DNA of 37,192 nucleotides from Anaerovibrio sp. (lineage in GTDB: Bacteria; Bacillota; Negativicutes; Selenomonadales; Selenomonadaceae): assembly GCA_017475925.1 (NCBI GenBank), contig JAFVER010000118.1, positions 1 through 37,192 of the forward strand. Direction: 5' to 3'. This document shows, one piece after another, positions 6,065 through 22,452 of this stretch. The position numbers and the translations under genes were made by a program. A model generated the notes under the pieces. That model was given only the letters and a program-made list of their open reading frames with translations. It was not told where the DNA came from and made no database searches. Each line of letters starts with the position of its first letter. The first letter of the stretch is position 1.

Positions 6065-6128
6065 TGACAAGTATTGGCAGTTATGGTCTAATTTAAAGGG
6101 AAGGGCTAAGAATATAGAGGAGATGGAT

Positions 6129-7214: not shown

Positions 7215-7255
7215 GACTCATTCAGTGGGAGCTTTGTATTTCCCTTATAGTGGAA
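7207..7255 (+). repeat. 3'-end hairpin repeat, copy B (degenerate)
   Basis: TTAAATGAGACTCATTCAG at 7207-7225 matches the start of copies A, C and D, and it carries the TGA stop of the nitroreductase gene (7212-7214). The distal arm is eroded (TTCCCTTATAGTGGAA instead of CTCCCACTGAA), so the stem is imperfect. The next repeat family begins immediately downstream. Confidence 0.65.
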
Positions 7256-7485
7256 TACCTCATCCGCCTCGCTGGCTCGGCACCTTCCCCAAAGGGGAAG
7301 GCAAGAATTACATGCTTGGTTTCATGTAAAAATATATATACATTTTGGTGAGCAATAAGCTTGGGCAATACACTGGAAAAAAGAGGTTGCTGGCATATAG
7401 CCTGTAAGAAAAGTTGAGCTTGTCTCCATCGGGGGAGATGTCACGAAGTGACAGAGGGGGTTAATGTCTGATTATACAATGAAAT
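7255..7485 (+). repeat. GC-rich composite intergenic repeat, copy 2
   Basis: The left arm begins near CCTCATCCGCC (7259) and contains CCTTCCCCAAAGGGGAAGG (7283-7301). The right arm runs from AGTTGAGCTTGTCTCC through GGGGGAGATGTCACGAAGTG to TTAATGTCTG and TATACAATGA. It fills most of the gap between the nitroreductase and DJ-1 genes. The outer end carries GTGACA (7448-7453) and TATACA (7473-7478), a weak promoter-like pair with a 19-bp spacer, pointing at the DJ-1 gene. Confidence 0.75.
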
Positions 7486-7509
7486 TTTATTAAAATTAGG
7501 AGGTGTCTT

Positions 7510-8016: not shown

Positions 8017-8030
8017 TTATTGGTAAGTAG

Positions 8031-8192
8031 AACACCTCATCCACTGTTCCTAAAGGGACTAGCTTCGTGTCGCAAACGGACCCCCTTCCCCAAAGGGGAA
8101 GGTAAGGGAAAAATATTGAAAATATTGCCATAAGGTAAGAAGTTGAGCTTGTCTCCCTTGGGGGAGATGTCACGAAGTGACAGAGGGGGTAA
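8031..8192 (+). repeat. GC-rich composite intergenic repeat, copy 3
   Basis: The arms are the same as in the copy at 7255-7485. CCTCATCC begins at 8034, CCTTCCCCAAAGGGGAAGG lies at about 8084-8102, and the right arm GAGCTTGTCTCCCTTGGGGG leads to a dyad with CACGAAGTG and then AGGGGGT. The spacer between the arms is shorter than in copy 2. After AGGGGGT the sequence diverges from copies 1 and 2, so the TATACAATGA end is missing here. Confidence 0.75.
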
Positions 8193-8198
8193 TAATTG

Positions 8199-8227
8199 TT
8201 TATGAACATGTAAAGTTATGGTAGAAT
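8199..8227 (+). promoter_or_regulatory. Possible extended -10 promoter of the ior-paaK operon
   Basis: TGGTAGAAT at 8219-8227 matches an extended -10 box (TGn plus TAGAAT). The -35 region is poor (TTTATG at 8199-8204, 17-bp spacer). It lies about 65 nt upstream of the iorA start. Prediction only. Confidence 0.35.
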
Positions 8228-8291
8228 AAAGCTGTTGTCGATGTAAGTGTGTGTATCGGCAGAGAAAATATTTGTCATTAGGGGAGATACA

Positions 8292-10130
8292 ATGCATCAG
8301 GAATTTTTAATGGGCAATGAGGCCATTGCCATGGGAGCTATGGCGGCCGGAGTTAATCTGGTGGCAGGCTATCCGGGGACTCCATCAACAGAGGTTTTGG
8401 AAACAGTTGCCAAGGGGCGCTCCAGGGATACTTATGTGGAGTGGTCAATTAATGAAAAGGTGGCCATGGAGGTTGGAGCCGGAGCAGCCTATTGCGGCGC
8501 CAGGGTAATGGTGACCATGAAGCAGGTCGGTCTTAATGTGGCAGCTGACCCGCTGATGAGTCTTGAATATATTGGGGTAAAGGGTGGAATGGTTGTCCTG
8601 GTGGCTGATGACCCAGGTCCAATATCCTCTCAGACTGAACAGGATACCAGACATTTTTCCCGCTTTTCCAAGCTGCCGTGCTTCGACCCATCTACAGTGC
8701 AGGAAGCCTATGACATGATACAGGATGCCTTTGAATTTTCAGAAAAATATGGAACACCTGTATTCTTTCGTTCAACCACCCGAGTATCGCATGGCTATGC
8801 CGATATTACTGTAAAGGATAAAAATGAGTACAAGCATATTGCCCCGGAGGGCTTTGTTAAGGATACCAAACGATGGGTTATTTTTCCAAAGCTGTCCTAT
8901 CAGGCCCATATTAATATAGAAGCAAGGAACAAGGAATTATCGAAGGTTTTTTCGTCCTATGAAAAAAATCTCCTGTTGAATAAGGACAGCAGGGAATATC
9001 CCAATCGGGGGATTGCCACCGGCGGCTTTAGCTACAGCTATTCTATAGAGGCATTGAAGACCTTGGGGCAGGTGCCGCTGTTGAAGGTTTCCACACCGCA
9101 TCCTTTTCCTGAGGAGCTGGCTGTAAAATTTTTGACGGGCTTAGACGAGGTGCTTTGTCTGGAAGAGCTTGATCCGGTTATTGAGCGGGAGCTTATTTAT
9201 ATATGTGGCAAATACCGGCTGCCGGTGAAAATATATGGTAAATTAACTGGCAATGTCCCACCAGCCGGTGAAAACACTTTGGACAGTGTTTATAAATGTA
9301 TTGCTAATTTTTTAGGTGTAGAGCAGGAAGCGGAGGCTGCCTTGAATGAGCAGGATTTGGCAGAAATGCCGGAGCTGCCGGTACGACCGCCGGTTCTTTG
9401 TGCCGGGTGTCCCCATCGGGCAGCCTTTTATGCTGTCAAGGTGGCTATGAAGGGGAAAAAGACAATTTTCTGTGGGGATATTGGCTGTTATACCATGGGC
9501 AATGCCATGCCTCTCGATATGGTAGATACCTGTCTGTGTATGGGAGCTGGCCTGGGGATAGCCCAAGGGGTAAATCATATTGAGCCGGATACCAGCTGCT
9601 TTGCCTTTGTGGGGGACTCTACCTTTTTTGCCGCCTCGATAACCGGCGTAATAAACGCTGTATATAATCAGGCCAATATGACACTGATTGTGCTGGACAA
9701 TTCCACCACAGCCATGACTGGGCATCAGCCACATCCCGGTACCGGTCAGACCATGATGGGAGAGGTAGTGGCTAAGATAAGTATAGAGGGGATTTTAAAG
9801 GGCATAGGACTGGAGTTTGTCAAAACGGTAAATCCCCTTGACCATAAGGCGGCAGTAAGGACTGTACAGGAGGCAGCCGCCCAACCGGGGGTAAAGGCAA
9901 TTATTTTCAAATCACCATGCATTGCCCTTGTAAAAAGCGATAAATCCTTGCAGGTGAATCAGTCAAGGTGTATAAATTGTCACAAATGTATTAAGGAAAT
10001 CGGTTGTCCTGCGTTGATTATCAGGGATAATCAGGTAATGATTGATGATTCCCTGTGCACAGGCTGTGGGCTTTGCAGTCAGATATGCCCGATTGAAGCC
10101 ATTGGCATTGGAGGTGAATCAGATGAGTAA
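8292..10130 (+). CDS. iorA: Indolepyruvate ferredoxin oxidoreductase, alpha subunit
   Basis: 612 residues, the normal length for IorA. With IorB it oxidatively decarboxylates aryl-pyruvates (indolepyruvate, phenylpyruvate, hydroxyphenylpyruvate) to aryl-acetyl-CoA while reducing ferredoxin. The N-terminal half is the pyrimidine-type transketolase domain (AGYPGTPSTEVLE). The C-terminal half holds a CAGCPHR motif and the thiamine-diphosphate region starting with GDST near residue 440. The last ~60 residues carry two [4Fe-4S] motifs, CINCHKC...GCP and CTGCGLCSQICP. ATG 8292 is chosen because GGGGAG (8281-8286) is correctly spaced; the upstream in-frame start at 8247 lacks a site. The gene overlaps iorB by 8 nt. 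The context suggests aromatic amino acid fermentation. Confidence 0.93.
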   Translation: MHQEFLMGNEAIAMGAMAAGVNLVAGYPGTPSTEVLETVAKGRSRDTYVEWSINEKVAMEVGAGAAYCGARVMVTMKQVGLNVAADPLMSLEYIGVKGGMVVLVADDPGPISSQTEQDTRHFSRFSKLPCFDPSTVQEAYDMIQDAFEFSEKYGTPVFFRSTTRVSHGYADITVKDKNEYKHIAPEGFVKDTKRWVIFPKLSYQAHINIEARNKELSKVFSSYEKNLLLNKDSREYPNRGIATGGFSYSYSIEALKTLGQVPLLKVSTPHPFPEELAVKFLTGLDEVLCLEELDPVIERELIYICGKYRLPVKIYGKLTGNVPPAGENTLDSVYKCIANFLGVEQEAEAALNEQDLAEMPELPVRPPVLCAGCPHRAAFYAVKVAMKGKKTIFCGDIGCYTMGNAMPLDMVDTCLCMGAGLGIAQGVNHIEPDTSCFAFVGDSTFFAASITGVINAVYNQANMTLIVLDNSTTAMTGHQPHPGTGQTMMGEVVAKISIEGILKGIGLEFVKTVNPLDHKAAVRTVQEAAAQPGVKAIIFKSPCIALVKSDKSLQVNQSRCINCHKCIKEIGCPALIIRDNQVMIDDSLCTGCGLCSQICPIEAIGIGGESDE

Positions 10131-10710
10131 AAACATTGTGCTGTGCGGTGTAGGAGGACAGGGTACTGTTCTCGCCTCCAAGCTGATTTCTGGTGCTGCC
10201 ATGAACAAGGGCTTGTCGGTAAAAAGTGCCGAAACCATAGGCATGGCCCAGCGGGGGGGCAGTGTGTTCAGCCATCTGCGGCTGGGAAAGGATGCCTGCT
10301 GTCCAATGATTGCCAGGGGGACAGCTGATGTGCTGATTGGCTTTGAGCCTGGGGAAGCTGTGCGAATGCTGCCATATTTAAAAAAAGGTGGACAGGTAAT
10401 TGTCAGCTCCCGTTCAGTCATGCCGGTAACGGCGGCTTTGGCCGGCTCCGGCTATAATGGCAGTGAAATGCTGGAGTATTTAAGGTCCAAGGTGGATAAG
10501 CTTATTGTTGTAGATACAGAAAAGGCCTGTCGGGAATTGGGGTCAACCAAAATTGTCAATCTGCTTTTGTTGGGGGCAGCCGTGGAAAGCGGGGCCCTGG
10601 GTCTTTCGGCTGACGATATTCGGCAGGTGATAGTGAGCCGTATTCCACAAAAAATCCATGAATTAAATTTTCGGGCATTAAGCTATGCTGGTGCCCATAA
10701 AGGGGTTTGA
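10123..10710 (+). CDS. iorB: Indolepyruvate ferredoxin oxidoreductase, beta subunit
   Basis: 195 residues, the gamma-type subunit of 2-oxoacid:ferredoxin oxidoreductases. The N-terminus has the family's IVLCGVGGQGT motif, and SAETIGMAQRGGSVFSHLR follows, as in IorB/PorG. The start ATG overlaps the end of iorA and is preceded by GAGGTG at 10111-10116, so the two subunits are probably translationally coupled. Together with IorA it yields aryl-acetyl-CoA from transaminated Trp, Phe or Tyr. No Fe-S motif is expected or seen. The next gene (paaK) starts 4 nt after the stop. Confidence 0.92.
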   Translation: MSKNIVLCGVGGQGTVLASKLISGAAMNKGLSVKSAETIGMAQRGGSVFSHLRLGKDACCPMIARGTADVLIGFEPGEAVRMLPYLKKGGQVIVSSRSVMPVTAALAGSGYNGSEMLEYLRSKVDKLIVVDTEKACRELGSTKIVNLLLLGAAVESGALGLSADDIRQVIVSRIPQKIHELNFRALSYAGAHKGV

Positions 10711-10714
10711 AGCA

Positions 10715-11950
10715 ATGAAGATTAATGAAGAGCAGCTTAAGCTGGTAAACAACCGTATTGATGCCCTACAGACGGCCAACAGCTTCTATGGGAAAAAGCT
10801 GGAGGAGGCCGGTATAAATCATGTAGCCTCACCGGAGGAATTTGAACAGTTGCCCTTTTCCGAAAAGGATGATTTACGGGATGCCTATCCATTGGGCTTA
10901 ATGACAGCTGATGAAAAGGATATTGTCCGCATACATTCGTCCTCTGGTACAACTGGCACTCCGGTAATAATTCCTTACACCAAAAAGGATGTAGATGACT
11001 GGGCCACCATGTTTGCCCGTTGTTATGAATTTGCCGGCATTACCAGTGAGGACAGACTGCAAATCACACCGGGCTATGGTCTATGGACAGCAGGAATAGG
11101 CTTTCAGGCGGGCTGTGAAAAGCTTGGAGCCATGTGTGTACCGATGGGTCCAGGTAATACGGATAAGCAGCTTCAGATGATGCAGGATATGAAAAGCACA
11201 GTAATTTGCGCTACCTCATCTTATGCCTTGCTATTGGCTGAGGAAATCCAAAAACGGGGCATTAAGGATAAGGTCATGCTGAAAAAGGGTGTTATTGGCT
11301 CAGAGCGGTGGGGCCAGAAAATGCGGGAGCGTATTTCAAGAGAGCTGGGCATTGAGCTGTATGATATTTACGGGCTGACGGAGATTTATGGACCGGGGAT
11401 AGGAATTAACTGTAAATATGACACTGGTATGCATTATTGGGATGATTATATTTATTTGGAAATCATCGATCCAAAGACCTTAAAGCCGGTACCTGATGGG
11501 GAATGGGGTGAAATTGTTATCACCACCCTAGTTAAGGAAGGGGCTCCGCTTATTCGGTATCGTACCCATGATATGTCCAGAATAATTCCTGGTGAATGTC
11601 AGTGTGGCAGTAAATTCCCGCGAATTGATGTTATTGCTGGTCGTACCGATGATATGATGAAGATTAAAGGAGTAAATGTATTCCCTAAGCAGATTGAGGA
11701 GATTTTGCAGGAGTTCCCTGAATTGTCCAGCGAATATCAAATCCGTATATCCCATCTTGACGGAAAGGATACCATGCGTATTTATGTGGAAACCAATGGC
11801 TCCGTAGACTTTTTGGATATGGCAAAACGGGTTGCTGCCAGAGTAAAGAGCCGCATAGGCTTTACACCGCTGGTTAAGGTGGTGGAAATTGGCCTGCTGC
11901 CACGAAGTGAGAAAAAGACTAAACGGGTAATTGATGAACGTTATGAATAA
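10715..11950 (+). CDS. paaK: Phenylacetate-CoA ligase (aryl-acetate:CoA ligase, AMP-forming)
   Basis: 411 residues, slightly shorter than the usual ~430. It is an adenylate-forming enzyme that interconverts phenylacetate or indoleacetate with its CoA thioester. The P-loop SSSGTTGTPV lies at ~residue 83, the DIYGLTE motif near 220, the RYRTHDMSRI motif near 290, and the hinge GRTDDMMKIKGVNVFP near 310. The C-terminal domain is the PaaK type. ATG 10715 is preferred over 10685 because the latter would overlap iorB and has no ribosome binding site. Adjacency to iorAB suggests either ATP recovery from aryl-acetyl-CoA or re-activation of aryl-acetate. A strong terminator follows at 12022. Confidence 0.9.
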   Translation: MKINEEQLKLVNNRIDALQTANSFYGKKLEEAGINHVASPEEFEQLPFSEKDDLRDAYPLGLMTADEKDIVRIHSSSGTTGTPVIIPYTKKDVDDWATMFARCYEFAGITSEDRLQITPGYGLWTAGIGFQAGCEKLGAMCVPMGPGNTDKQLQMMQDMKSTVICATSSYALLLAEEIQKRGIKDKVMLKKGVIGSERWGQKMRERISRELGIELYDIYGLTEIYGPGIGINCKYDTGMHYWDDYIYLEIIDPKTLKPVPDGEWGEIVITTLVKEGAPLIRYRTHDMSRIIPGECQCGSKFPRIDVIAGRTDDMMKIKGVNVFPKQIEEILQEFPELSSEYQIRISHLDGKDTMRIYVETNGSVDFLDMAKRVAARVKSRIGFTPLVKVVEIGLLPRSEKKTKRVIDERYE

Positions 11951-12021
11951 AAATAATAGCCTGTAAAAATCTCTGTAAATAGAAGCTTCTATGGCAATAA
12001 AATATATATTTCGTAATTTTG

Positions 12022-12057
12022 CTGGAATTGGGTAAAACCGGTTCCAGTATTTTTTAT
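12022..12057 (+). terminator. Intrinsic terminator of iorA-iorB-paaK
   Basis: CTGGAATTGG (12022-12031) pairs with CCGGTTCCAG (12038-12047), including two G-T wobbles, around a 6-nt loop. TATTTTTTATT follows. It separates the aryl-acid operon from the NRPS operon. Confidence 0.85.
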
Positions 12058-12396
12058 TGACTATAATTTTAGGCACACTGACTATGACAATAATTAGTCT
12101 AATATTTAAGCCGATTTTCGTACTTGTCAATCATGTATTTCAGGCAATAATTTATCCGTAATATCAGAAATGTTGTTTTGCTGTTTTTCCTTTCCAAATG
12201 TTGCCCATAAGAAATACTCGGATAAAGTAAATTTTTTTGGCTTCACCTTTTGCTTTCCTTATGAGAAAAGTAAAAACCGTTTCTTATAGGGGGAGCATAT
12301 CATTTTCTTATTGCGACAGCCCCAGTGTTTTTTGCAGGAATAGAGCAAATGGTGACGAATTATTAGGTAAAGTGTTTTTTGAAAGGATGAACTGCT
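12058..12396 (+). promoter_or_regulatory. Leader/promoter region of the STAS-NRPS operon
   Basis: About 340 bp without a credible gene. It is AT-rich, and I find no convincing sigma-70 promoter or known riboswitch. CCCATAAGAAA (12204-12214) and TTTCTTATAGGG (12280-12291) are near-perfect inverted copies, with a weaker related CCTTATGAGAAAA at 12257. They could be operator half-sites or form a leader hairpin. AAAGGA at 12382-12387 is the ribosome binding site of the STAS gene. Confidence 0.4.
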
Positions 12397-12699
12397 ATGG
12401 AAATCAAAAAGGAAAAAAATGGTTCAGCACTGAAACTGACTCTTATAGGAAAGCTATCCATCCAGGAAGCCAAGGATTTAGGCAAGGTGATTGATGAGGA
12501 GCTGTCCGATGTCACGGATTTGACTTTCGACATTAAAGAGCTGACCTATGTGTCCTCTGCCGGGCTTAGAGTATTGCTGACAGCTCAGAATATAATGGAT
12601 GATGCCGGCGGCACTATGAAACTGTTAAATGTTTCACCGTTTATTATGGATGTACTTAAGCTGACTGGATTTAATAAGTTTATGAATATAGAGAATTGA
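12397..12699 (+). CDS. STAS-domain anti-anti-sigma-like protein (SpoIIAA/RsbV type)
   Basis: 100 residues, a stand-alone STAS domain. In this family the protein is phosphorylated by an RsbW/SpoIIAB-type kinase and dephosphorylated by a PP2C phosphatase; only the unphosphorylated form binds and neutralises the kinase. The diagnostic segment LTYVSSAGLRVLL aligns with the phosphoserine loop (D-S-[ST]-G-L). Ser54 is the predicted phosphosite, and the usual Asp before it is Ser53 here. The C-terminal helix (VLKLTGFNKFM) is typical. The NRPS gene follows after 33 bp, with its own ribosome binding site. A SpoIIE-type phosphatase is the last gene of the same operon, and no kinase is present in the window. 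Role inferred: regulatory switch of the NRPS operon or of a sigma factor elsewhere. Confidence 0.9.
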   Translation: MEIKKEKNGSALKLTLIGKLSIQEAKDLGKVIDEELSDVTDLTFDIKELTYVSSAGLRVLLTAQNIMDDAGGTMKLLNVSPFIMDVLKLTGFNKFMNIEN

Positions 12700-12732
12700 T
12701 AATCTTTTGGTGTCAATCAGGGAGAAAAGCAA

Positions 12733-15700
12733 ATGAAATTATTAGTTAATGAATTCCTGGCTCAAGCAACAGCCCGGCCAGACAAACCAGCGGTGATGGA
12801 TTGCTATGGTACGGATACATATGGCGTCCTTAACCGGCGTTCGGCGATTGTGGCGGCCCGTTTACTTGATATGTCGCAAGATCAAAATACTGGAATGAGG
12901 GTTGGTGTGCTGCTTCCCCGTAACCGAGCTTATTTAACGGCAGTATTAGGTATTTTACGGTCTGGCGGAGCGGTAGTTCCTTTGGAAGAGGATTATCCGG
13001 CAGAGCGGGTACACTCTGTGCTAAGGGATGCAGGCTGTGTTGCCTGTATTTCTATTGAACAGTTATCCGAAAAGGTTGCTGACATCCCTGTTTTGACATT
13101 AGAGGAGATATTTGCTGATGAGGATACCCTTGCGGTAGATGATACCATAAATTTATCGGCCCCGGACAAGAAAGGCTTGATTCTCTTTACTTCTGGCTCC
13201 ACGGGCAAGCCGAAGGGAGTAGTGCACCGTCAGACCTTTTTCTCCATGTGGCTTTATACTGTAAAGGGATACCATGAGTTTTCGGGCAAAGATGTGACCT
13301 GCTGTATGGCCGGAATGACATTTATTGCATCTTTTGTGGATCTTTATCCGCCGCTTATGGTTGGAGGCAGCGTTTATATTGCCAGCTCCACGGAGCGGAT
13401 GAATGCAGACATGCTGTATAAAATTATCCAAAAGCGCCATATCACCGGGATGTTTTTGCCACCGCAGATGTTCTATGTAATGCGGGAGTTGTACGGCCGT
13501 TTGCCTCTGGATTATGTTGTCTTAGGCGGTGAAAAGGCGAAGGCGAAGTACACTATGGACGGCAATATTTTCGAGGTATATGGTTCCAGTGAATGTGCAG
13601 CTATTCTTCTTCATAAAATAGCCCAGGAGGATTCCCGTATGTTGGGAAAGCCGGGTAATGGTGTAAGTGTTTATTTGGTTTCTGATGATGGAAAACTCAT
13701 TCAGGAGCCGGGGGTACTTGGTGAGCTATGCGTGGAAAGTCCTTGGCTGGCATTGAGATATAACAATATGCCTGAGGAAACGGCTGCCAAGTTTACGGAT
13801 AATCCATTCGGTGCGGGTCGTCTGTTTCACACCGGAGATTACATGGCTTATGATGAAGAGGGAAATCTTCTGTTCCACGGCCGTAAAGACCATATGGTGA
13901 AGCTTAGAGGGTATCGGGTAGAGCTTGGTGAAGTGGAATTGACTGTGCAAAAAGCCAATGGAGTTCAGGAGGCCGCCTGTGTCACTATTCGGGTGCATGG
14001 TGGCGACAAATTGGCTTGCTATTATATTGGTGACCAAGTGGACAGCAATGTTTTGCGCAATCATGTGAAGGCCATTTTGCCGGAATATATGGTGCCGGAT
14101 TATTTTGTATATCTGGCTGATATGCCGCGCAACGAGCGGAATAAAGTGGATTACCTCGCCTTGAAAAATATGGAGCCGCCAGTGGAAGAGGAAGAATATG
14201 AACCACCACAAAATGACCTGGAGGCAAAGATTTGTGCTGCTTTTGCCGAGGTATTGGAGCTGCCGCGGGTAAGTGCATTGGCAGATTTCTTTAATATGGG
14301 CGGAACTTCTTTGTCTGTGGCTATGTTGGTGGCTCAGCTGGATGATGCCACTTTGTCCTTTAACGATATAGCATCTTATCCAACTCCACGGGCCCTGGCA
14401 GCCTATTTAGAGGAAAATGCCAAGAACCACCGGGAGAAGCCGGTAATGAACCGGGAATTTTATCCGCTTACCAAAACTCAGATGGGCATTTACTTGGAGG
14501 GGTTAACTGGTGGTAACACTTCCACCTATACATTATCCTATTTGATGGTAGCTGATGCTAAGGTTACGTCTGACCAGTTGGTAAGGGCTGTAAAGGATGT
14601 TGTGGATGCGCATCCTTCTATGAAATATGTTATTCGGGCCGGGAAAGATGGTATACCACACATGTTTATGGTGCCAGATGCTGTGTTTGAGGTTCCTGTT
14701 ATAGATGGCAGTGTGGATCAGCGCCTTGATTTTATCCGTGAATACATGCCAGTGGTACCTATGACAAATGAACTGCTGTTTTACTTTGCTGTTTATCGCA
14801 CTGCAGAGCGATGCTATCTGGCCTTAAAGAGTCATCTGATTTTCTTTGATGCTACATCCTTAAGTCTCCTGATTAGTGAGCTGAACCGGGCCCTTGGTTC
14901 CTCCTCGGGCAGGGTAGAATATTTGCAGGAGGAATATACCATACAGCAAGTGGGTATGTATGAGGAAGCGCTCATGCAGGAAGGGGCTCATGAAAAGGCC
15001 GAGGCATATTTTCAAAAGCTGTTTGCCAAGATGGATGAAGTACCATCATTGGTGGGCGACCGGGAAGGACCTCTTACTCCGGGAGTCAGTGAAAATATGC
15101 GGTATATACCGAAAAACCTTACTGTAGAGCAGGTAAAGGCTTTTTGTAATCGTCATCAAATATCTGAGGGCAGCTTCTTTATGGGAGCCATGGCGTTACT
15201 GTTGTCCAAATACTTGAGCAGCAAGCAGGTTTCCTTTTCCAGTGTATATAATGGCCGTGCCCAGGCGGGGATGGATACCACTATTGGCACGCTTATAAAA
15301 CGAATACCTGTTTATGGTAATTTTACTGAAAATATGCCGGTGGTGGACTATCTGCGGAATATGGGACGACAGATTGTCACCAGTATGGGTAACGATATTT
15401 ATTCCTTTGATGAGGTGCTGAAGCATTGTCCGGTAAATGAGGATGTGGAATTCATCTATCAGGGAGATTTGTTCACCGATAACATGGGCGGTGGTAATAA
15501 CGATGAAGGTGGAAATCTCATTTGTGGCGATTCCTATTTCCTGGAGCATTACCACACCGGCATGGTTACGGGATGCTTCTCTATCCAATTTTTCTCTACC
15601 AATGGGTTGTATAATATGACCATAGAATATCGCAATGAGCGGTTCTCACCGGCCTTTGTGGAGCGGTTTGCCCAGGATTTGTTTACGGTAGCGGAAGAGC

Positions 15701-18700
15701 TTTTACGCCAGGAGTTGATGGGGGATATTTCCCTTCTTACGGACGACGACAAGAAATCCTTGGCCGTCTTTAACGATACACAAGTTATCATGGATTTTGT
15801 CCCTGTACAGGAACAGATTCGCCGGCAGGCTCAAATGACGCCTGACAAGGTGGCTGTTACAGCTGCCGGTCACTCACTGACCTTCAGCGAACTGGATGAG
15901 CTTTCCGACCAGGTGGCCCATTCCCTCATCAGCGAAGGGGTGACCTTAGAAACACTGGTTGGTGTTCTCTTTGACCGGGAGGTTTGGGCCTATGTGGCCG
16001 AAATTGGTATATTAAAGGCCGGTGGTGCCTTCGTACCATTTATTCCGGAGTATCCGGATGAGCGGATAGAGTATTGTCTGGAAGATGGCAATATTCCTAT
16101 TTTGCTTACTTCAACGGATTTGATGAACCAGCGTTCAGCCCTGAGGGAGCAGTGCAAAGTGCTGTCCCTGGACAAGCTTCTTGACAATAAGGAGACGGAT
16201 ACTGAGCTTCCGGAGGTGGGGGCTGATAATTTGGCATATTGTATCTATACCTCTGGTACCACTGGCAAGCCGAAGGGGGTAATGATTGAACATAAAAATA
16301 TTGCCAACTATGTTCATCGCAATGAAAAATCCCCGGAAATTATGCATTATACCAAGCCGGGCCGCGTTGCCTTGGCATTGGCTTCTTTCTCCTTTGATGT
16401 GTCCATTGTGGAGGAATTTGTTCCGCTGTGTAATGGCTGTTCGGTAGTAATTGCCACGGAAGAGGAGATACATACACCAAATCAGTTGGCCCAGCTGATT
16501 ATAAATAACGGGGTAAATGGTATTACCTGTACTCCGACGTATCTTTTGGGCCTGTTGGCTATCCCGGAAACCGTGGAAGCCCTGCAGCAGATTACTTTTT
16601 ATGATGTGGGGGCGGAAGCCTTCCCAGCCGGGCTCTACCAGAAGCTACGCGCTTTGCGCCAGGACAGCGTGATTTTGAATGTATATGGTCCTACTGAGGC
16701 CACCATGGGCTGTGCCGCCGAGGAAATGGTGGAAAGCGAGGTTGTTACCGTTGGTACACCTATTGCCAATACCCAGTTCTATATAGCTGATTCCTTTGGC
16801 AATCCTTTGCCGATTGGCATTCGGGGCGAGTTGATGATTTGCGGCCAGCAGGTTGGCCGGGGCTATATAAATTTACCGGATAAAACGGCAGCGTCCTTCT
16901 TTGAAAAAGATGGCATCCGGGCCTATCGCAGCGGCGATTTGGCCGCATGGACCAATGAAGGAAAAATCCGGGTCTTTGGCCGGATTGATAATCAGATTAA
17001 ACTTCGGGGCTTCCGTATTGAATTGGATGAAATAGAGAAGGTGCTGATGGAGTATCCTGACATCAATTCAGGTGCGGTTTCTGTCCTGAAAAAAGGTACA
17101 GGGGAATATTTGGTTGGTTATTATACTTCAGTTAAAGCTGTGGATGATAATAAGCTCAAGAACCATCTTGCGGCTAAATTGCCGGAATATATGGTTCCAA
17201 ATCTGTTTGTTCGCTTGGAAGCTATGCCGTTGACGCCAAATGGCAAGGTGAACAGGCGGGCCCTGCCGGAACCGGATTTGTCGGCCTTTCGGGCTAAGTA
17301 TGAGCCGCCAGCCACGGAGGTGGAGCGGGTTCTTTGTCATGCCTTTGCCCTGGCCCTTAATTTGCCGGAGGACAAGGTGGGAGCCTTGGATGATTTCTTT
17401 GATTTGGGTGGCGATTCCCTTAGTGCCATGGTGGCTTTGGCCAACGCGGATATTTCGGGACTGATTGCTGCAGATATTTTCCAAAAGCGAACCCCTAGAC
17501 AGATTGCGGTTATTGCTGAGGAACGGGTGAATATGGGCAGCTTCGAAGAACGGGAAATGGTGGCCCGCAAGCAACCGTTGGCCTTGACCCCGCTACAAAT
17601 CCAAATGCTGGATATCCAGCTGTTCCGTCCAGAGGCCACCATGTGGAGTAATATGCATTTTCTGGTGCAATTTGAGCTGGATGAGGTTGATATGCATCGG
17701 TTGTGTAAAGCGGTTAATCGGGCTATAGCCAATCACCCGGCTTTATCATCGGTATTCCGCTTTGACGAGAACCGGGAGTTGGTGCAGCAGTATGTACCTG
17801 GTATTCTGGAAGAGGTTGAGTTGCAGGATATCAATGAAGAAACCGTACCAATGCTGCCGGATGTTTTGGTTATGCCATTTGATAAAATATTGGATGCCTG
17901 TCTGTGCCGCGTAAAGGTGTTCCGGTCCCCATCCCATGGATATATGTTTATGGATATTCATCATCTACTGATGGATGGCGATTCCCTTGGGGTTCTGCTG
18001 GCGGATATTGTTAATGCGTACTTCGACCGGGAGCTTCAGCCTGATTATTATTTTGCCCTTCGCAGTGAAGAAATCCAGCGGATAGAGCAAGGTAGTTGGA
18101 ATGAGGATCAGGCATGGTTTGAAGCGCAGTATGGCGATGAGGTTTGGTGTAAAATACCAGATATGTCTGTAGAGTCTCAGGAGTTGGTAGACCGTGAGCA
18201 TATTGACCAGGCCGCTATGGAACAGCGTCTGGATTTTTCGGCCGATGATGTTAAAAGGGCTGAGAAATTCTGGGGGGTTAGTCATTCAGTAATGGCCATT
18301 GGCGCGGCTCTTTTAACCTTGTCCCGCTTTACCGGCAAACAGCATGTCATGGTGAATTGGATTTATAATGATCGCCTGGCGGCGGAAGCTCAGCATGCTG
18401 TGGGTATGATGATAAAGAATTTACCGGCTGCGGCCCGTATGGAAGAATATGCCTCTATGTCTGAATTCCTTATATCTGTGAAGGATCAGGTGGCAGAGGG
18501 AATTGCGCATAGCTCCTATGATTTCATGGCAGAAAATTTTGAACCTTTCGTTGATGATTGTATGGAGGTTAATCTCCAGCTGGGAATCAATGGCGACGAG
18601 CTGGATGTGCTTAAACCGACCCTTATTGAGCTGGCAGATGAATTCGCAGCTGCTGGTGCGCCTTTGGAGTTGGAGCTGTTAGAAAATAATTATGGTGATG

Positions 18701-18822
18701 GTGGCTTTGATTCCGAGATGGAATATGCAAAGGGATTATTTGATGCAGAACAAATGCGGGCCTTCCACGACCTTTATGTAAAAATTTTGGAAGGTATTGT
18801 TCGTTGTGAGGAAAAATTATGA
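12733..18822 (+). CDS. Two-module non-ribosomal peptide synthetase (A-T-C-A-T-C)
   Basis: 2029 residues. A1 (~1-490) has TSGSTGKPKG near 152, YGSSE near 283, FHTGD near 366 and GRKDHMVKLRGYRVELGE. At the A4 core it reads FIAS, so the Asp that binds the alpha-amino group is Ile. T1 has its phosphopantetheine Ser526 in GGTSLS. C1 (~575-1010) reads SHLIFFDATS in place of HHxxxDG, so the catalytic second His is Leu702. A2 (~1025-1510) is canonical: TSGTTGKPKG near 1173, FDVS with Asp1222, YGPTE near 1318, NGKVNRRAL. T2 has Ser1562 in GGDSLS. C2 (~1610-2029) is intact, His1743-His1744...Asp1748. No thioesterase, reductase or epimerase domain follows. The product may be a short acylated peptide or amide. 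GGAG lies 8 nt before the ATG. MATE overlaps the stop by 4 nt. Confidence 0.93.
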   Translation: MKLLVNEFLAQATARPDKPAVMDCYGTDTYGVLNRRSAIVAARLLDMSQDQNTGMRVGVLLPRNRAYLTAVLGILRSGGAVVPLEEDYPAERVHSVLRDAGCVACISIEQLSEKVADIPVLTLEEIFADEDTLAVDDTINLSAPDKKGLILFTSGSTGKPKGVVHRQTFFSMWLYTVKGYHEFSGKDVTCCMAGMTFIASFVDLYPPLMVGGSVYIASSTERMNADMLYKIIQKRHITGMFLPPQMFYVMRELYGRLPLDYVVLGGEKAKAKYTMDGNIFEVYGSSECAAILLHKIAQEDSRMLGKPGNGVSVYLVSDDGKLIQEPGVLGELCVESPWLALRYNNMPEETAAKFTDNPFGAGRLFHTGDYMAYDEEGNLLFHGRKDHMVKLRGYRVELGEVELTVQKANGVQEAACVTIRVHGGDKLACYYIGDQVDSNVLRNHVKAILPEYMVPDYFVYLADMPRNERNKVDYLALKNMEPPVEEEEYEPPQNDLEAKICAAFAEVLELPRVSALADFFNMGGTSLSVAMLVAQLDDATLSFNDIASYPTPRALAAYLEENAKNHREKPVMNREFYPLTKTQMGIYLEGLTGGNTSTYTLSYLMVADAKVTSDQLVRAVKDVVDAHPSMKYVIRAGKDGIPHMFMVPDAVFEVPVIDGSVDQRLDFIREYMPVVPMTNELLFYFAVYRTAERCYLALKSHLIFFDATSLSLLISELNRALGSSSGRVEYLQEEYTIQQVGMYEEALMQEGAHEKAEAYFQKLFAKMDEVPSLVGDREGPLTPGVSENMRYIPKNLTVEQVKAFCNRHQISEGSFFMGAMALLLSKYLSSKQVSFSSVYNGRAQAGMDTTIGTLIKRIPVYGNFTENMPVVDYLRNMGRQIVTSMGNDIYSFDEVLKHCPVNEDVEFIYQGDLFTDNMGGGNNDEGGNLICGDSYFLEHYHTGMVTGCFSIQFFSTNGLYNMTIEYRNERFSPAFVERFAQDLFTVAEELLRQELMGDISLLTDDDKKSLAVFNDTQVIMDFVPVQEQIRRQAQMTPDKVAVTAAGHSLTFSELDELSDQVAHSLISEGVTLETLVGVLFDREVWAYVAEIGILKAGGAFVPFIPEYPDERIEYCLEDGNIPILLTSTDLMNQRSALREQCKVLSLDKLLDNKETDTELPEVGADNLAYCIYTSGTTGKPKGVMIEHKNIANYVHRNEKSPEIMHYTKPGRVALALASFSFDVSIVEEFVPLCNGCSVVIATEEEIHTPNQLAQLIINNGVNGITCTPTYLLGLLAIPETVEALQQITFYDVGAEAFPAGLYQKLRALRQDSVILNVYGPTEATMGCAAEEMVESEVVTVGTPIANTQFYIADSFGNPLPIGIRGELMICGQQVGRGYINLPDKTAASFFEKDGIRAYRSGDLAAWTNEGKIRVFGRIDNQIKLRGFRIELDEIEKVLMEYPDINSGAVSVLKKGTGEYLVGYYTSVKAVDDNKLKNHLAAKLPEYMVPNLFVRLEAMPLTPNGKVNRRALPEPDLSAFRAKYEPPATEVERVLCHAFALALNLPEDKVGALDDFFDLGGDSLSAMVALANADISGLIAADIFQKRTPRQIAVIAEERVNMGSFEEREMVARKQPLALTPLQIQMLDIQLFRPEATMWSNMHFLVQFELDEVDMHRLCKAVNRAIANHPALSSVFRFDENRELVQQYVPGILEEVELQDINEETVPMLPDVLVMPFDKILDACLCRVKVFRSPSHGYMFMDIHHLLMDGDSLGVLLADIVNAYFDRELQPDYYFALRSEEIQRIEQGSWNEDQAWFEAQYGDEVWCKIPDMSVESQELVDREHIDQAAMEQRLDFSADDVKRAEKFWGVSHSVMAIGAALLTLSRFTGKQHVMVNWIYNDRLAAEAQHAVGMMIKNLPAAARMEEYASMSEFLISVKDQVAEGIAHSSYDFMAENFEPFVDDCMEVNLQLGINGDELDVLKPTLIELADEFAAAGAPLELELLENNYGDGGFDSEMEYAKGLFDAEQMRAFHDLYVKILEGIVRCEEKL

Positions 18823-20150
18823 ATATAAAACTGTCAGATCATTTTACCTGTGGTAAGCTGGTGTGGTTTGCTTTACCCACCATTGGTATGATTTTGGTGT
18901 CTACCACCTATGACCTTATCGATGGCTATTTCGTGTCCAATTATATCGGTAAGACAGCTTTCGCGGCGATAAATATCATCTACCCGTATCTGTTGGCTAT
19001 TATGGCGGTGGGGATGATGTTTGGTGTGGGCGGCAGTGCCCTTATTGCTGCTGAACTGGGTAAGGGGGACCGGGAGCGGGCTAACCGTTACTTTACCATG
19101 ATTGTCAAGGCGGCATTTGGCGCCGGAGTTGTACTGGGGGCAGCTGGTTTATATGCTTTGCCAACGGTGTCGGAACTCTTGGGAGCCACTGAGGATATGA
19201 TGAGCTATGGACTGCCCTATGGTCGTGTGCTGTTGTGCTTTATGCCTATAGCAATTTTGAGCTACGCCTTTCAAAGTCTGCTGTTTACCGCCGAAAAGCC
19301 CCAATTTGGCCTGTATTTTTCCCTGATAAATATGGGGTCAAATATTATCTTCGATTGGTTGTTCATTGTGATTTTTGGCTGGGGGATGACAGGCGCAGCC
19401 TTGGCTACGGCCATTGGTATGTGCCTTAACGGTATATTGCCCCTTGTCTACTTCCTGCGGGAAAATACCAGTCCTCTACGGCTGGTGAAGAAGAGTGGTT
19501 GGGATATAGGACCACTGCTGGGGGCCATGGGTAACGGTTCCTCCGAAATGGTGACCAATGTTTCCACAGCGTTGATTTTCATATTTTATAATATGCAGCT
19601 TATGCGGTTTATCGGTGAGGATGGCGTGGCAGCCTATGGAACGGTTCTGTTCGTTGAGGGAATTTTTGCGGCAATCTTCTATGGGTTGGCCATGGAGGCC
19701 ACATCAGTGGTGGGGTATCATGCCGGAGCCCAAAACTATGATGAGCTGCAAAGTCTGCTGAAAAAAGGCGTTATGCTTAATTTGGGCTGTGGTATAGTGA
19801 TGTTTGGTTCAGCCCAATGCTTTGCCCCTTTTGTGGCAGAAATCTATTTAGGCTACGATGCTGAGTTATGTGCCTTGGGGATATATGCCCTTAGAATGTT
19901 TGCTTTTGCCTTTATTTTACAGGGCTTCAATGAATATGCTTCGGCGTACTTTACCGGTTTGGGCAATGGGCGGGTTTCAGCGGCTATAGCCTTTATGCGT
20001 ACTTTTGTGCTGCAATCTGCGGCCATTTTTGGCTTGCCGATGCTTCTGGGGACCGATGGCCTCTGGTTTGCCCAGACCTTTGCTGAAGTGGTTTCTACTT
20101 TGGTAGCAGTTGTATTTTTGGTAAAATTCCGTCACGAATTTATGGGATAG
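18819..20150 (+). CDS. MATE family efflux transporter
   Basis: 443 residues with about 12 hydrophobic segments, the normal size and topology of a MATE (multidrug and toxic compound extrusion) antiporter. The N-terminal segment GKLVWFALPTIGMILVSTTYDLIDGYFVSNYIG region matches the first two helices of the DinF/NorM-like group, including the Asp of helix 1-2 and the YxGxxAxAA-type step. Its ATG overlaps the NRPS stop codon (ATGA), so translation is probably coupled. This makes it the likely exporter of the NRPS product (inference from context). Coupling ion (Na+ or H+) cannot be told. The sensor-phosphatase gene follows 22 bp later. Confidence 0.92.
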   Translation: MNIKLSDHFTCGKLVWFALPTIGMILVSTTYDLIDGYFVSNYIGKTAFAAINIIYPYLLAIMAVGMMFGVGGSALIAAELGKGDRERANRYFTMIVKAAFGAGVVLGAAGLYALPTVSELLGATEDMMSYGLPYGRVLLCFMPIAILSYAFQSLLFTAEKPQFGLYFSLINMGSNIIFDWLFIVIFGWGMTGAALATAIGMCLNGILPLVYFLRENTSPLRLVKKSGWDIGPLLGAMGNGSSEMVTNVSTALIFIFYNMQLMRFIGEDGVAAYGTVLFVEGIFAAIFYGLAMEATSVVGYHAGAQNYDELQSLLKKGVMLNLGCGIVMFGSAQCFAPFVAEIYLGYDAELCALGIYALRMFAFAFILQGFNEYASAYFTGLGNGRVSAAIAFMRTFVLQSAAIFGLPMLLGTDGLWFAQTFAEVVSTLVAVVFLVKFRHEFMG

Positions 20151-20172
20151 AATAGGATGGAGTATCATCGAT

Positions 20173-22452
20173 ATGAAGGACATTTTTAGCTATTTATCAG
20201 GTGGAAAAGAGAATAGTATTTTGCATAAGATGATACGCATTCTTCTGGGCAGCAATCTGATTGTTATTCTTGTTTTGGTAATAATTGCCTTTTACGGGCT
20301 GGGGGCAGCTCTGTACCAGGCTGAAGAAATGGGACATAAACTTAGTGAGGTGTCCTATCAGAATAGTTCTGAGCTTTTGGTAAAGCAACGGCAAGAGGAA
20401 CTAATGTATATTACCAGTGACAATGCTAAAATTATCAATTTGTACATGGTATCTAATATCTATGATGTGCAGGCTATTGCCCACGAGGCCAGTGAGCTTT
20501 ATCGTCATTCAGGTTTATATCCGTCCCGGAATGTAGCTGTGCCCAATGCAGAGGAATTTCAACCACTGAAAATTTATCTTCAGCACGGAACGGAGGTAAA
20601 CCCCGACAATTATCGCCAGGAAATAGCCTTAATGGCTAATATTGAGGGATTTTTTGTCCGTCTCATGGAAGTTAATGATATGGCAGAATCCTTTTTCATA
20701 ACTTCTCACCATAATTATACCCTGTCCGTCGATGAACCCGATGATGTGGAGGGGAGCAAAGAAAGTATACCCGATGTTATATATAATGCCGTGGAGACTG
20801 ATTGGTATAAGCAAGCGGTAGAACAAGGTAAACCTGTCTTTACTGATGTTAGAATGTTTTCATTTTACAATGAGCCGGGTTTATTTTGTGCCTGCCCGTA
20901 TTATGATGATAATAGTTCCTTGCTTGGTGTGGCTGCCATGGAGATTTCCCTGGAAAATTTGCGAATCCTTGTAAAGGATACCAATCTGCCTAATGCCGGT
21001 TTTTGTTTTGTTTTAGATAAAAAAGGGAGAGTTATTTTATCATCCCAAAGTGAGGCTTACCAAGCTGGTGAGGAAATGGAGCTGCCGGTAGATTTGAAGA
21101 AGGATATTCGCGCTGCGAATAACCAAGACTTATCACAGATAGCTCAGAATATGACTTTGGGCCAAAAGGGAATTCAGCTGGCAGAAATAGATGGCGACGA
21201 ATATTTTGTGGCTTATGCTCCAATTGAATGTACAGGCTGGAGCTTTGCTACGGTCTTTGCCAAGGATGATGTAATTGCTCCTGTCGAACAAAATAAAGAA
21301 AATATTGAACTGCTCACTGCTGATTTAATGGATGATATGGAGAGAAATATAGATTCAATAGTTCTTTTTATGGTATTATCCATACTCTTCCTACTCTTAT
21401 TTGTCATAAAGATAGGACAAAAGGTGTCCGGAAGATTTGTTTCATCCATTCAGAAGCTGACCAATGGTGTTCGTGATCTCACCAAGCGGGCCATAGTCGG
21501 CACATTACATGCTTTTGGTGAATTGCCGGAGAAAGGTAATAAACGGTCAAATAACAGCTTTACGCAGCGGGTGGAAATTCATTCCGGTGATGAAATTGAA
21601 GAATTGGCCAATTGTTTCAATATTATGACTGAAGAATTGGAAGGCTATATGAATACCCTTGTAGCTGAGACAGCGGAAAAGGAGCGTATAGCTACAGAGC
21701 TAACTCTGGCTCAGGATATCCAGATGGGGGTATTGCCTCATAAATTCCCGCCGTTCCCGGAGCATAAGGAGTTTGATCTTTTTGCCTCTATGGAATCAGC
21801 CAAAGAAGTGGGGGGAGATTTCTACGATTTCTATATGGTGGATGATCACCGTTTGGCTGTTACCGTTGCTGATGTGTCCGGTAAGGGAGTGGGGGCGGCC
21901 ATGTTTATGGCTATATCCAAAACCATACTGAAGAACTTGCTTCTAACCGGCAATAATCTGACATTATCTGATATAATGGCCCATGCCAATAACCAGCTTA
22001 AAGCGGATAATACCGCCAGAATGTTTGTGACGGTGTTCATTGGCCTTTTAGACATAAGGACAGGTCTTTTTGAATATGTGAATGGGGGACATAATCCATC
22101 GCTGGTTTATGAAAAGGACAAGGGAGCTTTCCGATATCTAGATGTGGAAGCCAATTTTGTACTGGCCGGACGAAAGAATATTGCTTATGAAAGTCAGTCG
22201 ATTATCCTAAAGCCGGGTGACGGTCTGTTTTTGTATACTGATGGCGTTACCGAGGCCATGAACAATAAAGAAGAATTGTACGGTGAAGCAAATCTGCTTT
22301 CTGCCCTTAATGCCTCATTAAATCCTAATGCTCCAGAGGCTCTCTTGGCGGAAATCAGTAAGTCAGTAGCCGATTTTGCGGGTGAAGCAGAACAATCTGA
22401 TGATATTACGATGCTGGGATTGACTTATTTGGGTTCAGTTGGAGAAGATTAA
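20173..22452 (+). CDS. Membrane sensor with SpoIIE-type PP2C phosphatase domain
   Basis: 759 residues. A transmembrane helix lies at about 22-48, followed by a ~340-residue extracytoplasmic sensor region of the dCache type (its end reads DEYFVAYAPIECTGWSFATVF). The second helix is at ~397-416, then a HAMP-like region and a coiled coil to ~525. The SpoIIE/PP2C domain follows, with GGDFYDFY near 547, DVSGKGVGAAMF, VNGGHNP, LYTDGVTEA near 690 and QSDDITML near the end, so the metal-binding acidic residues are present. The family dephosphorylates STAS proteins such as the one at 12397, which opens this operon. The sensor domain faces outside the inner membrane, where an exported product would be. 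Feedback sensing of the NRPS product is an inference. No clear terminator follows. Confidence 0.9.
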   Translation: MKDIFSYLSGGKENSILHKMIRILLGSNLIVILVLVIIAFYGLGAALYQAEEMGHKLSEVSYQNSSELLVKQRQEELMYITSDNAKIINLYMVSNIYDVQAIAHEASELYRHSGLYPSRNVAVPNAEEFQPLKIYLQHGTEVNPDNYRQEIALMANIEGFFVRLMEVNDMAESFFITSHHNYTLSVDEPDDVEGSKESIPDVIYNAVETDWYKQAVEQGKPVFTDVRMFSFYNEPGLFCACPYYDDNSSLLGVAAMEISLENLRILVKDTNLPNAGFCFVLDKKGRVILSSQSEAYQAGEEMELPVDLKKDIRAANNQDLSQIAQNMTLGQKGIQLAEIDGDEYFVAYAPIECTGWSFATVFAKDDVIAPVEQNKENIELLTADLMDDMERNIDSIVLFMVLSILFLLLFVIKIGQKVSGRFVSSIQKLTNGVRDLTKRAIVGTLHAFGELPEKGNKRSNNSFTQRVEIHSGDEIEELANCFNIMTEELEGYMNTLVAETAEKERIATELTLAQDIQMGVLPHKFPPFPEHKEFDLFASMESAKEVGGDFYDFYMVDDHRLAVTVADVSGKGVGAAMFMAISKTILKNLLLTGNNLTLSDIMAHANNQLKADNTARMFVTVFIGLLDIRTGLFEYVNGGHNPSLVYEKDKGAFRYLDVEANFVLAGRKNIAYESQSIILKPGDGLFLYTDGVTEAMNNKEELYGEANLLSALNASLNPNAPEALLAEISKSVADFAGEAEQSDDITMLGLTYLGSVGED

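What the first reader, a model, noticed from the sequence alone, without database searches (positions are those of the whole stretch)
12397..22452. NRPS operon wired to its own partner-switching module: STAS, NRPS, MATE, sensor-PP2C
Four genes in one direction with gaps of 33, -4 and 22 bp. A STAS protein with a conserved phosphosite opens the operon. A membrane phosphatase of the SpoIIE class with an extracytoplasmic sensor closes it. Between them are a two-module NRPS and a MATE exporter. The STAS-PP2C pair is known from sigma-factor control. Placing it around a biosynthesis-plus-export pair suggests a closed loop in which the exported product (or a host cue) is sensed outside and switches the STAS protein. 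The third partner, an RsbW-like kinase, is missing from the window, so it must act from elsewhere or be replaced.
Basis: partly seen in the sequence, partly recalled or inferred. Interest (0 to 1): 0.82.

Follow-up and report, generated by a model that had tools for sequence, protein, structure and literature searches.

The report
Phospho-switch wired to peptide synthesis–export
A bacterium related to rumen Anaerovibrio carries one gene row encoding a switch protein, a two-module peptide-making enzyme, an exporter and a sensor phosphatase, and relatives in which the switch domain is fused to a peptide-making domain and a matching kinase-like domain to an exporter suggest that these bacteria likely gate making and export of a small molecule by protein phosphorylation, probably without a sigma factor.

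Summary
In detail: STAS, A-T-C-A-T-C NRPS, MATE and dCache-HAMP-SpoIIE phosphatase in one direction, gaps 33/-4/22, order kept in 7 of 7 Anaerovibrio loci whose contig is complete there. The kinase is not lost: the genome's one clear RsbW-type kinase lies on contig C7 in an unfused set MATE-PatB-kinase-STAS-PP2C-condensation/cNMP, a type present in 8 of 8 NRPS-positive and 1 of 8 NRPS-negative genomes of the genus. Phosphatase genes lie within 2 kb of this NRPS in 5 of 42 loci outside the family (0.23 expected). The strongest evidence is fusions: STAS::condensation proteins (118 of 120 listed relatives carry both domains; 35 of 380 class genomes) stand beside a long MATE in 17 of 17 loci read, 14 with an RsbW-like C-terminal domain by my HMM; no sigma gene was found in those stretches. 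I favour a partner switch acting directly on NRPS and exporter, which is inferred and unproven. Product sensing is weak: the sensor's outer half is missing in 3 of 8 complete orthologs. I rate it a new variant of a known kind; my searches of the held open-licence papers listed no description.

The parts
12020..12049 (+). intrinsic-terminator-like stem that likely separates the upstream gene from the operon
   Evidence: a consensus match only (18 found in the region, 10.7 expected by shuffling)
12331..12396 (+). 5' leader block kept in orthologs (TTTGCAGGAAT...GACGAA...GAAAGGATG before the STAS start)
   Evidence: alignment of 9 upstream regions, (L074 is offset there and not informative); the exact 11-mer occurs once in the window, 0.06 expected, and not in L008
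12397..12699 (+). STAS switch protein, predicted phosphosite Ser54 (12556-12558)
12733..18822 (+). two-module NRPS A1-T1-C1-A2-T2-C2, no thioesterase or reductase among Pfam matches
   Evidence: nearest full-length relatives outside the genus are mostly gut/rumen Clostridia
12754..14172 (+). adenylation domain A1 (approximate limits); Ile at the place of the Asp of the FSFD motif, so possibly not an alpha-amino acid
   Evidence: alignment to LgrA; that this Asp binds the amino group is recalled
14452..15762 (+). condensation domain C1 (motif SHLIFFDA: second His and Asp kept)
   Evidence: H701 and D706 invariant in 16 sequences
17569..18807 (+). terminal condensation domain C2 (approximate limits; motif HHLLMDG)
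18819..20150 (+). MATE exporter, 443 aa, without a fused kinase domain
20173..22452 (+). membrane sensor phosphatase (dCache-HAMP-SpoIIE/PP2C)
   Evidence: stretches KEVGGDFYD, VADVSGKG, YTDGVTE, QSDDIT read (that they are the PP2C acidic motifs is recalled)
20620..21252 (+). extracytoplasmic dCache_1 sensor; motif YNAVETDWY lacks the Arg of amino-acid-type dCache
   Evidence: PMC10104139 passages on PctA R126
21841..22422 (+). SpoIIE-type PP2C catalytic domain

Best explanation
The operon encodes a STAS switch protein, a two-module NRPS, a MATE exporter and a membrane PP2C phosphatase, and it likely works as a partner switch in which the RsbW-type kinase encoded elsewhere in the same genome would phosphorylate the STAS protein on Ser54, the phosphatase is predicted to remove that phosphate when its outside sensor is triggered, and the dephosphorylated STAS protein likely acts directly on the condensation domains and exporter rather than through a sigma factor. 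Shown: gene order and its conservation; phosphosite and phosphatase motifs present; one clear RsbW-type kinase in the genome, in a separate gene row that also holds a MATE, a STAS, a PP2C and a condensation-fold protein; repeated linkage of such genes to this NRPS family; fusions of STAS to condensation domains and of RsbW-like domains to MATE in related gene rows. Inferred: that the C7 kinase acts on this STAS; that STAS contacts the NRPS or MATE; that contact switches synthesis or tethers synthesis to export; what the sensor detects.
For: Order kept in 7 of 7 complete Anaerovibrio loci. The kinase on C7 is the own genome's only HATPase_c_2 match at E<=1e-8, in a row with STAS, PP2C, a condensation/cNMP protein, PatB and MATE. 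That C7 type occurs in 8 of 8 NRPS+ and 1 of 8 NRPS- genus genomes (P 0.0007 if genomes were independent). STAS 47% and PP2C 36% identical to the C7 pair and on the same side of both trees, away from the ECF-linked module. SpoIIE-type genes within 2 kb of this NRPS in 5 of 42 loci outside Selenomonadaceae against 0.23 expected. NRPS nested among Clostridia while STAS and phosphatase are nearest the family's own, so the wiring was likely rebuilt after transfer. Fusions: STAS::condensation with both domains in 118 of 120 listed relatives, xHxxxDG in 115 of 117, switch Ser invariant in 45 of 45 aligned; beside a long MATE in 17 of 17 loci read (of 38 full-length rows), 14 with an RsbW-like domain by my own HMM, 7 with an A-T-C NRPS between, 9 with PP2C just upstream. 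Pfam confirms MATE::HATPase_c_2 above cut-off in L103 and both L110 genes and in L121, L122, L126, L130. No sigma gene found in the 17 fetched STAS::C stretches.
Against: No interaction, phosphorylation or product was measured. The window's own STAS and MATE are unfused and the own genome shows no STAS::C, so the fusions are an analogy. In 35 of 42 loci outside the family no SpoIIE-type gene was seen in the fetched flank (up to 10 kb; many contigs end early), and L080, sister of L072, lacks the gene L072 has. 9 of 9 loci of the nearest one-module NRPS relatives hold NRPS + MATE and no switch genes in the fetched 13-20 kb. The MATE-fused HATPase of the Selenomonas family mostly lacks the N-box Asn (63, 73), so it may be a non-catalytic partner; in L139, L145 and L146 the Pfam match is below cut-off. 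Co-occurrence in one genus is confounded by descent. The genome is 88.5% complete, so a second kinase may be missing; C124 also passes the PF13581 cut-off, though it reads as a histidine kinase.
Confidence: 0.48

Rival explanations
1. Conventional control: the C7 kinase sequesters a sigma factor, and the operon's STAS, once dephosphorylated, frees it so that the operon is transcribed.
For: This is the textbook use of STAS/PP2C/RsbW (recalled; PMC7340262, start of abstract in the listing). The own genome holds five sigma70-region-2 proteins. In A. lipolyticus LB2005 a further module STAS-PP2C-PP2C::HATPase-ECF-type sigma lies about 12-15 kb downstream of the operon. A conserved leader block precedes the STAS gene.
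Against: The C7 row has no sigma gene. A sigma gene was seen in 6 of 109 fetched loci: four ECF-module loci, L122 (SigH type) and a weak match in L087, which is an NRPS locus. STAS and PP2C of the window fall away from the ECF-linked module in both trees. The conserved leader 11-mer is absent from L008. Fusions tie the same domains to synthesis and export proteins instead.
Confidence: 0.27
2. Closed loop: the phosphatase's sensor binds the exported product and reports it to the STAS protein.
For: Exporter and extracytoplasmic dCache sensor are co-encoded. The sensor motif differs from the amino-acid type in 5 of 5 long orthologs, with Thr or Ala for Arg, so it may see something without a free carboxylate.
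Against: 3 of 8 complete orthologs (L039, L041, L042; 603 aa) lack the outer dCache half that holds this motif, with NRPS, MATE and STAS kept. Product and ligand are unknown.
Confidence: 0.1
3. The operon's STAS is served by another kinase, such as the PP2C::HATPase fusion of the ECF-linked module, and not by C7.
For: HATPase matches in frames of 847-871 aa are in 8 of 16 genus genomes, four of them read as PP2C::HATPase; in A. lipolyticus LB2005 that gene is on the operon's contig. The window's contig ends before that place.
Against: The own genome shows only the C7 kinase at E<=1e-8 and only two SpoIIE genes. Trees place the operon's STAS and PP2C away from that module.
Confidence: 0.1
4. 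Chance neighbourhood: STAS and PP2C regulate something unrelated and share only the transcript.
For: Most relatives of this NRPS outside the family show no such neighbour within the fetched flanks (35 of 42).
Against: Enrichment 5 of 42 against 0.23, different gene orders in L045, L052, L070, L083, L091, and the fusions.
Confidence: 0.05

Closest known systems
RsbU-RsbV-RsbW / SpoIIE-SpoIIAA-SpoIIAB partner switch
   Same: STAS protein with the Ser site, SpoIIE-type PP2C phosphatase, RsbW-type HATPase in the genome
   Different: no sigma gene beside the operon or the kinase; the co-encoded proteins are an NRPS and an exporter; the kinase is in a separate gene row
SiaABCD of Pseudomonas aeruginosa (PMC7647112 passages; PMC8457831 abstract)
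   Same: sensor PP2C plus kinase plus STAS-like protein whose target is a co-encoded enzyme, not a sigma factor; both phosphatases score to NCBI's SiaA model, though far below its cut-off
   Different: here the co-encoded enzyme is an NRPS with an exporter, not a diguanylate cyclase; direct contact is not shown here
Other STAS fusions, e.g. SulP/SLC26 transporters and Anabaena all4160, a glycosyltransferase with an N-terminal STAS (PMC8256260 passages)
   Same: STAS domain covalently tied to a transporter or an enzyme, so such fusions as a kind are known
   Different: fusion to an NRPS condensation domain, paired with a MATE that carries the RsbW-like domain, is not named in the passages seen (0 hits for nonribosomal, condensation, efflux)
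Gut fatty-acid-amide NRPS-like clusters, OaaA/OaaACP/OaaC (PMC13142362 passages)
   Same: gut anaerobe, A-T-C chemistry, condensation domain that may release onto a small amine
   Different: free-standing proteins with a (D/H)HxxxDS motif; the text has 0 hits for STAS, phosphatase or transporter
dCache_1AA amino-acid and dCache_1AM amine sensors (PMC10104139 passages)
   Same: dCache_1 fold; C7 phosphatase has a Y-x4-R-x-W-Y stretch
   Different: window phosphatase has Thr at the Arg position; full amine motif not tested

Membership tests
RsbUVW-type partner switch | STAS antagonist with conserved phospho-Ser | tested here: met
   TIGR00377 above cut-off; Ser54 aligned to RsbV
RsbUVW-type partner switch | PP2C/SpoIIE phosphatase with its acidic motifs | tested here: met
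   PF07228 155 bits; motifs
RsbUVW-type partner switch | RsbW-type HATPase kinase | tested here: met
   not in the window; C7 of the same genome, PF13581 81.7 bits, N-box EEIFTN and GGLGI read; below NCBI's RsbW equivalog cut-off
RsbUVW-type partner switch | sigma factor as the final target | tested here: inconclusive
   no sigma gene beside the operon or C7; five sigma genes elsewhere
RsbUVW-type partner switch | phosphorylation and dephosphorylation of the STAS protein | not testable with these tools
   needs purified proteins
SiaABCD-like enzyme-targeting switch | STAS protein bound to the co-encoded enzyme | not testable with these tools
   only indirect: STAS::condensation fusions
SiaABCD-like enzyme-targeting switch | diguanylate cyclase target | tested here: not met
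   no GGDEF among Pfam hits of the four operon proteins
Modular NRPS | A, T and C domains with catalytic motifs | tested here: met
   C1 has SHxxxDA, C2 HHxxxDG
Modular NRPS | terminal release domain (TE/R) | tested here: not met
   C-terminal domain is a condensation domain (6); C-terminal-C NRPSs exist (recalled)
STAS::condensation / MATE::kinase cassette defined here | covalent fusions | tested here: not met
   window STAS and MATE are unfused; own genome has no STAS::C match at E<=1e-40 (68)
dCache_1AA amino-acid sensor | Y-x4-R-x-W-Y stretch | tested here: not met
   Thr/Ala at the Arg place in 5 of 5 long orthologs; the motif is recalled, the role of the Arg is from PMC10104139 passages

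The most novel reading that the evidence does not exclude
A distinct class of partner switching in gut Bacillota and Synergistota: the switch protein docks on, or is fused to, peptide-synthetase condensation domains, and the RsbW-like partner is fused to the MATE exporter, so that phosphorylation set by an outside-sensing phosphatase decides when the synthesis enzyme is tethered to its exporter at the membrane; the Anaerovibrio operon is an unfused member that borrows the genome's shared kinase, and an associated catalytically dead condensation protein with a cNMP-type domain is a further docking partner.
Probability: 0.33. Interest if true: 0.87.

Novelty: new variant of a known kind. Interest (0 to 1): 0.7.

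Why it matters
If right, partner switching would control secondary metabolism by acting on the synthetase and exporter themselves, in gut and rumen bacteria whose NRPS products and triggers are largely unknown. The fusions make the question testable with two or three purified proteins, and the phosphatase sensors give a handle for finding the signal that turns such a cluster on.

Tried and rejected
Own-genome C124 HATPase match (over the PF13581 cut-off) as a second RsbW kinase: rejected by reading only, it looks like a histidine kinase beside a response regulator. A shared promoter between the operon and C7: the conserved leader 11-mer is absent from L008. L086 as a STAS-NRPS locus: Pfam finds nothing in that ORF, so it is not counted. 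L103 MATE::kinase as an active kinase: N-box Asn lost in most listed relatives, so I call it RsbW-like only. PDB relatives of the C7 kinase by sequence: none at E<=0.001. C-domain docking geometry: the AlphaFold2 model of STAS::C (P0121, 45 rows) has mean pLDDT 86 but stretches below 50 at 106-111 (between the domains) and 132-135, and pTM 0.71, so I draw nothing about docking from it. The A1 substrate was not predicted beyond the missing Asp. Paper searches: 9, 25, 59, 60, 75, 78 and 88 looked for such a system, 24, 64 and 74 for rumen NRPSs, dCache sensors and SiaABCD (all ten used). None of the titles and abstract starts listed describes a STAS/NRPS, STAS::condensation or MATE::HATPase system; but searches matched 675 and 4,088 papers of which I saw 15 and 10, and the library is open-licence only, so absence is weak.
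Full report
THE OBSERVATION. Pfam gives STAS; AMP-binding x2, Condensation x2, PP-binding x2; MatE; dCache_1-HAMP-SpoIIE. The STAS meets NCBI's anti-sigma-antagonist cut-off, and its Ser54 aligns to the Ser of the RsbV motif. The NRPS is A-T-C-A-T-C, ending in a condensation domain. At the place of the Asp of the FSFD motif, A1 has Ile, so its substrate may not be an alpha-amino acid (motif meaning recalled). The genus is inferred: the nearest named relatives are Anaerovibrio, NRPS 98% in L057. Among 16 genus genomes 8 have the NRPS at E<=1e-60. The order STAS-NRPS-MATE-PP2C is kept in 7 of 7 loci whose contig is complete there; the eighth contig (L074) ends inside the NRPS; Selenomonas RGIG9219 (L090) has STAS-NRPS-PP2C with part of the NRPS and the MATE missing, which could be real or an assembly fault.

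THE MISSING KINASE. In the own genome (88.5% complete, 228 contigs) there are two SpoIIE genes, two STAS genes and one HATPase_c_2 gene at E<=1e-8; C124 also passes the Pfam cut-off at E 1.3e-7 but reads as a histidine kinase. Kinase, second STAS and second SpoIIE stand together on contig C7, in a run on one strand: MATE, PatB-type C-S lyase, kinase, STAS, PP2C, and a 625-aa condensation-fold protein with a weak, below-cut-off cNMP-binding match. The C7 STAS is 47% and the PP2C 36% identical to the window's. The condensation/cNMP protein marks this C7 type. It is in 9 of 16 genus genomes, namely all 8 with the NRPS and 1 of 8 without; P is 0.0007 if genomes were independent, which they are not. 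A stand-alone kinase of any type is in 8 of 8 and 3 of 8 (G105, G106, G110). Kinase and STAS are adjacent in 7 of the 8; in G113 the kinase lies at a contig end. The Selenomonas genome with the operon copy also holds a PP2C-STAS-kinase-condensation/cNMP row (L111), its last protein 30% identical to C7's.

A THIRD MODULE. In A. lipolyticus LB2005, about 12 to 15 kb past the operon, lie ABC exporter genes, a TolC-like gene, STAS, PP2C, a PP2C::HATPase fusion and an ECF-type sigma gene (exporter, TolC and ECF names by reading only). The window's contig ends before that place. Trees put the window STAS and PP2C on the other side of a 100/98 split from this module, together with C7 and the clostridial ones. 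One row disagrees between trees: L111 falls with the third module by STAS and not by PP2C. So C7 is the better kinase candidate, but this is inference.

OTHER GENOMES WITH THIS NRPS. 55 loci were found, mostly ruminant-gut Clostridia, Butyrivibrio, Anaerovibrio and a few labelled Synergistaceae, Fretibacterium, Chloroflexi, Oribacterium, Selenomonas. A MATE scoring 200 bits or more to the window's is in 41 of 55 (counted). Switch genes near the NRPS outside Selenomonadaceae: L045 (MATE-NRPS-STAS), L051, L052, L070 (PP2C-kinase-NRPS), L072, L078, L083, L091 (STAS-MATE-GNAT-NRPS and a convergent PP2C). Expected numbers come from each genome's own SpoIIE count (50 of the 55 loci; 262 genes in 160 Mb), observed ones from my HMM: within 2 kb in 5 of 42 non-Selenomonadaceae loci, 0.23 expected, P 3e-6; within 10 kb in 7 of 42, 0.81 expected, P 1e-5 (the 8 Selenomonadaceae loci were left out). 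Those P values treat loci as independent; L072, L083 and L091 share one convergent arrangement. 35 of 42 show none in the fetched flank, and L080, sister of L072, lacks it. The 9 loci of the nearest one-module relatives (L112-L120, same family) hold NRPS + MATE only in the fetched 13-20 kb. In a tree of the second module (39 rows) the NRPS of Anaerovibrio is nested among Clostridia and one Synergistaceae-labelled row at 100/99, so synthetase and exporter were likely acquired, and the switch genes added.

THE FUSIONS. Just past its copy of the operon, Selenomonas RGIG9219 has PP2C, STAS, a STAS::condensation fusion (550 aa), an A-T-C NRPS and a MATE::HATPase fusion (590 aa). Relatives of the first: 344 at E<=1e-20, 118 of the 120 listed with both domains. 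Of the second: 87, 50 with PF13581 annotated (counted). In 380 class genomes, STAS::C matched from query residue 61 or earlier to the end is in 35 (38 rows, counted), six of them Anaerovibrio, not the window's genome. I fetched 17 of the 38: the STAS::C gene is followed by a long MATE, directly or after an A-T-C NRPS (7 of 17), in 17 of 17 (in L136 the MATE is spread over two overlapping frames); my HMM sees an RsbW-like domain in 14 of 17 of those MATEs; a PP2C is just upstream in 9 of 17. Three g10 loci have free condensation genes beside a MATE. Of 8 further clostridial or other ORFs with a HATPase match in a long frame, 7 are MATE::HATPase and 1 SpoIIE::HATPase by my HMMs; two of the 7 (L126, L130) stand beside an NRPS. 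Pfam confirms MATE::HATPase_c_2 above cut-off in L103 and both L110 genes and in L121, L122, L126, L130, and below cut-off in L139, L145, L146 and L091. In STAS::C the switch Ser is invariant in 45 of 45 and xHxxxDG is present in 115 of 117. The N-box Asn is mostly lost in the listed relatives of the L103 MATE; among 13 other fused MATEs aligned it is kept in 11 and lost in L085 and L091.

A DEAD CONDENSATION PROTEIN. The C7-type protein is in 112 of 380 class genomes at E<=1e-15. In the 30 loci returned, 19 have STAS, kinase or PP2C within the roughly 1.5-kb flank, and no row has His at the catalytic place, 30 of 30 (the own protein has a His one place further).

SIGMA OR NOT. Matching five sigma queries plus RpoD against 109 fetched loci gave 6 hits: four ECF-module loci (L094, L096, L108, L109), L122 (SigH type) and a weak one in the NRPS locus L087; none in the 17 STAS::C loci or the window. 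The own genome has five sigma genes elsewhere. Direct action of a STAS-like protein on an enzyme has a published precedent, SiaC on SiaD (abstract of PMC8457831; passages of PMC7647112). A review of STAS-only proteins has no hit for nonribosomal, condensation or efflux but does name other STAS fusions, SulP transporters and a glycosyltransferase (PMC8256260 passages). Phosphatase specificity for STAS substrates is studied in PMC11418112 (passages). I therefore favour direct action, at about even odds.

THE SENSOR. Long window-type phosphatases carry YNAVETDWY-like motifs with Thr or Ala where the C7 type has Arg (5 of 5 against 5 of 5). In PctA that Arg contacts the ligand carboxyl and it is not conserved in amine sensors (PMC10104139 passages). 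L039, L041 and L042 have 603-aa forms; in the two aligned, L041 and L042, the outer half of the sensor is absent and the rest kept. So what is sensed is open, and product sensing is not favoured.

JUDGEMENT. The row is a real, conserved operon-like unit and one case of a wider coupling of partner switching with condensation enzymes and MATE exporters that I found undescribed in the listings seen. The biochemical core is untested.

Noticed in passing
L094 (A. lipolyticus LB2005) 4339-18733: HlyD-like, two ABC exporter genes and a TolC-like gene followed by STAS, PP2C, a PP2C::HATPase fusion and an ECF-type sigma gene: a partner switch beside an exporter, about 12-15 kb from the NRPS operon
   Followed up: partly
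own genome contig C111 (L099): an ECF-type sigma gene directly behind an ABC exporter gene; the genome's two STAS and two SpoIIE genes lie on other contigs
   Followed up: no
L008 847-2724 and 112 class genomes: condensation-fold protein with a weak cNMP-binding match and no His at the catalytic place in 30 of 30 aligned, often beside STAS/kinase/PP2C
   Followed up: partly
L039, L041, L042 phosphatase genes: 603-aa forms; in L041 and L042 the membrane-distal half of the dCache sensor is absent with the rest of the protein kept
   Followed up: partly
L090 10001-13909: NRPS with a large internal deletion and no MATE in Selenomonas RGIG9219, beside a second switch-NRPS-MATE row; real or an assembly fault
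   Followed up: no
L131 (G400) 100-2055: SpoIIE::HATPase-type fusion by my HMMs: phosphatase and kinase-like domain in one protein
   Followed up: no
L091 6528-12270: on the other strand beside the NRPS: a MATE with a weak HATPase match, a 424-aa protein without Pfam match, a GGDEF protein and a PP2C in a row
   Followed up: no
window 12331-12396: conserved 5' leader of the operon of unknown role
   Followed up: partly
window 145-5091: 1648-aa repetitive protein that reads like an outer-membrane autotransporter-type protein
   Followed up: no
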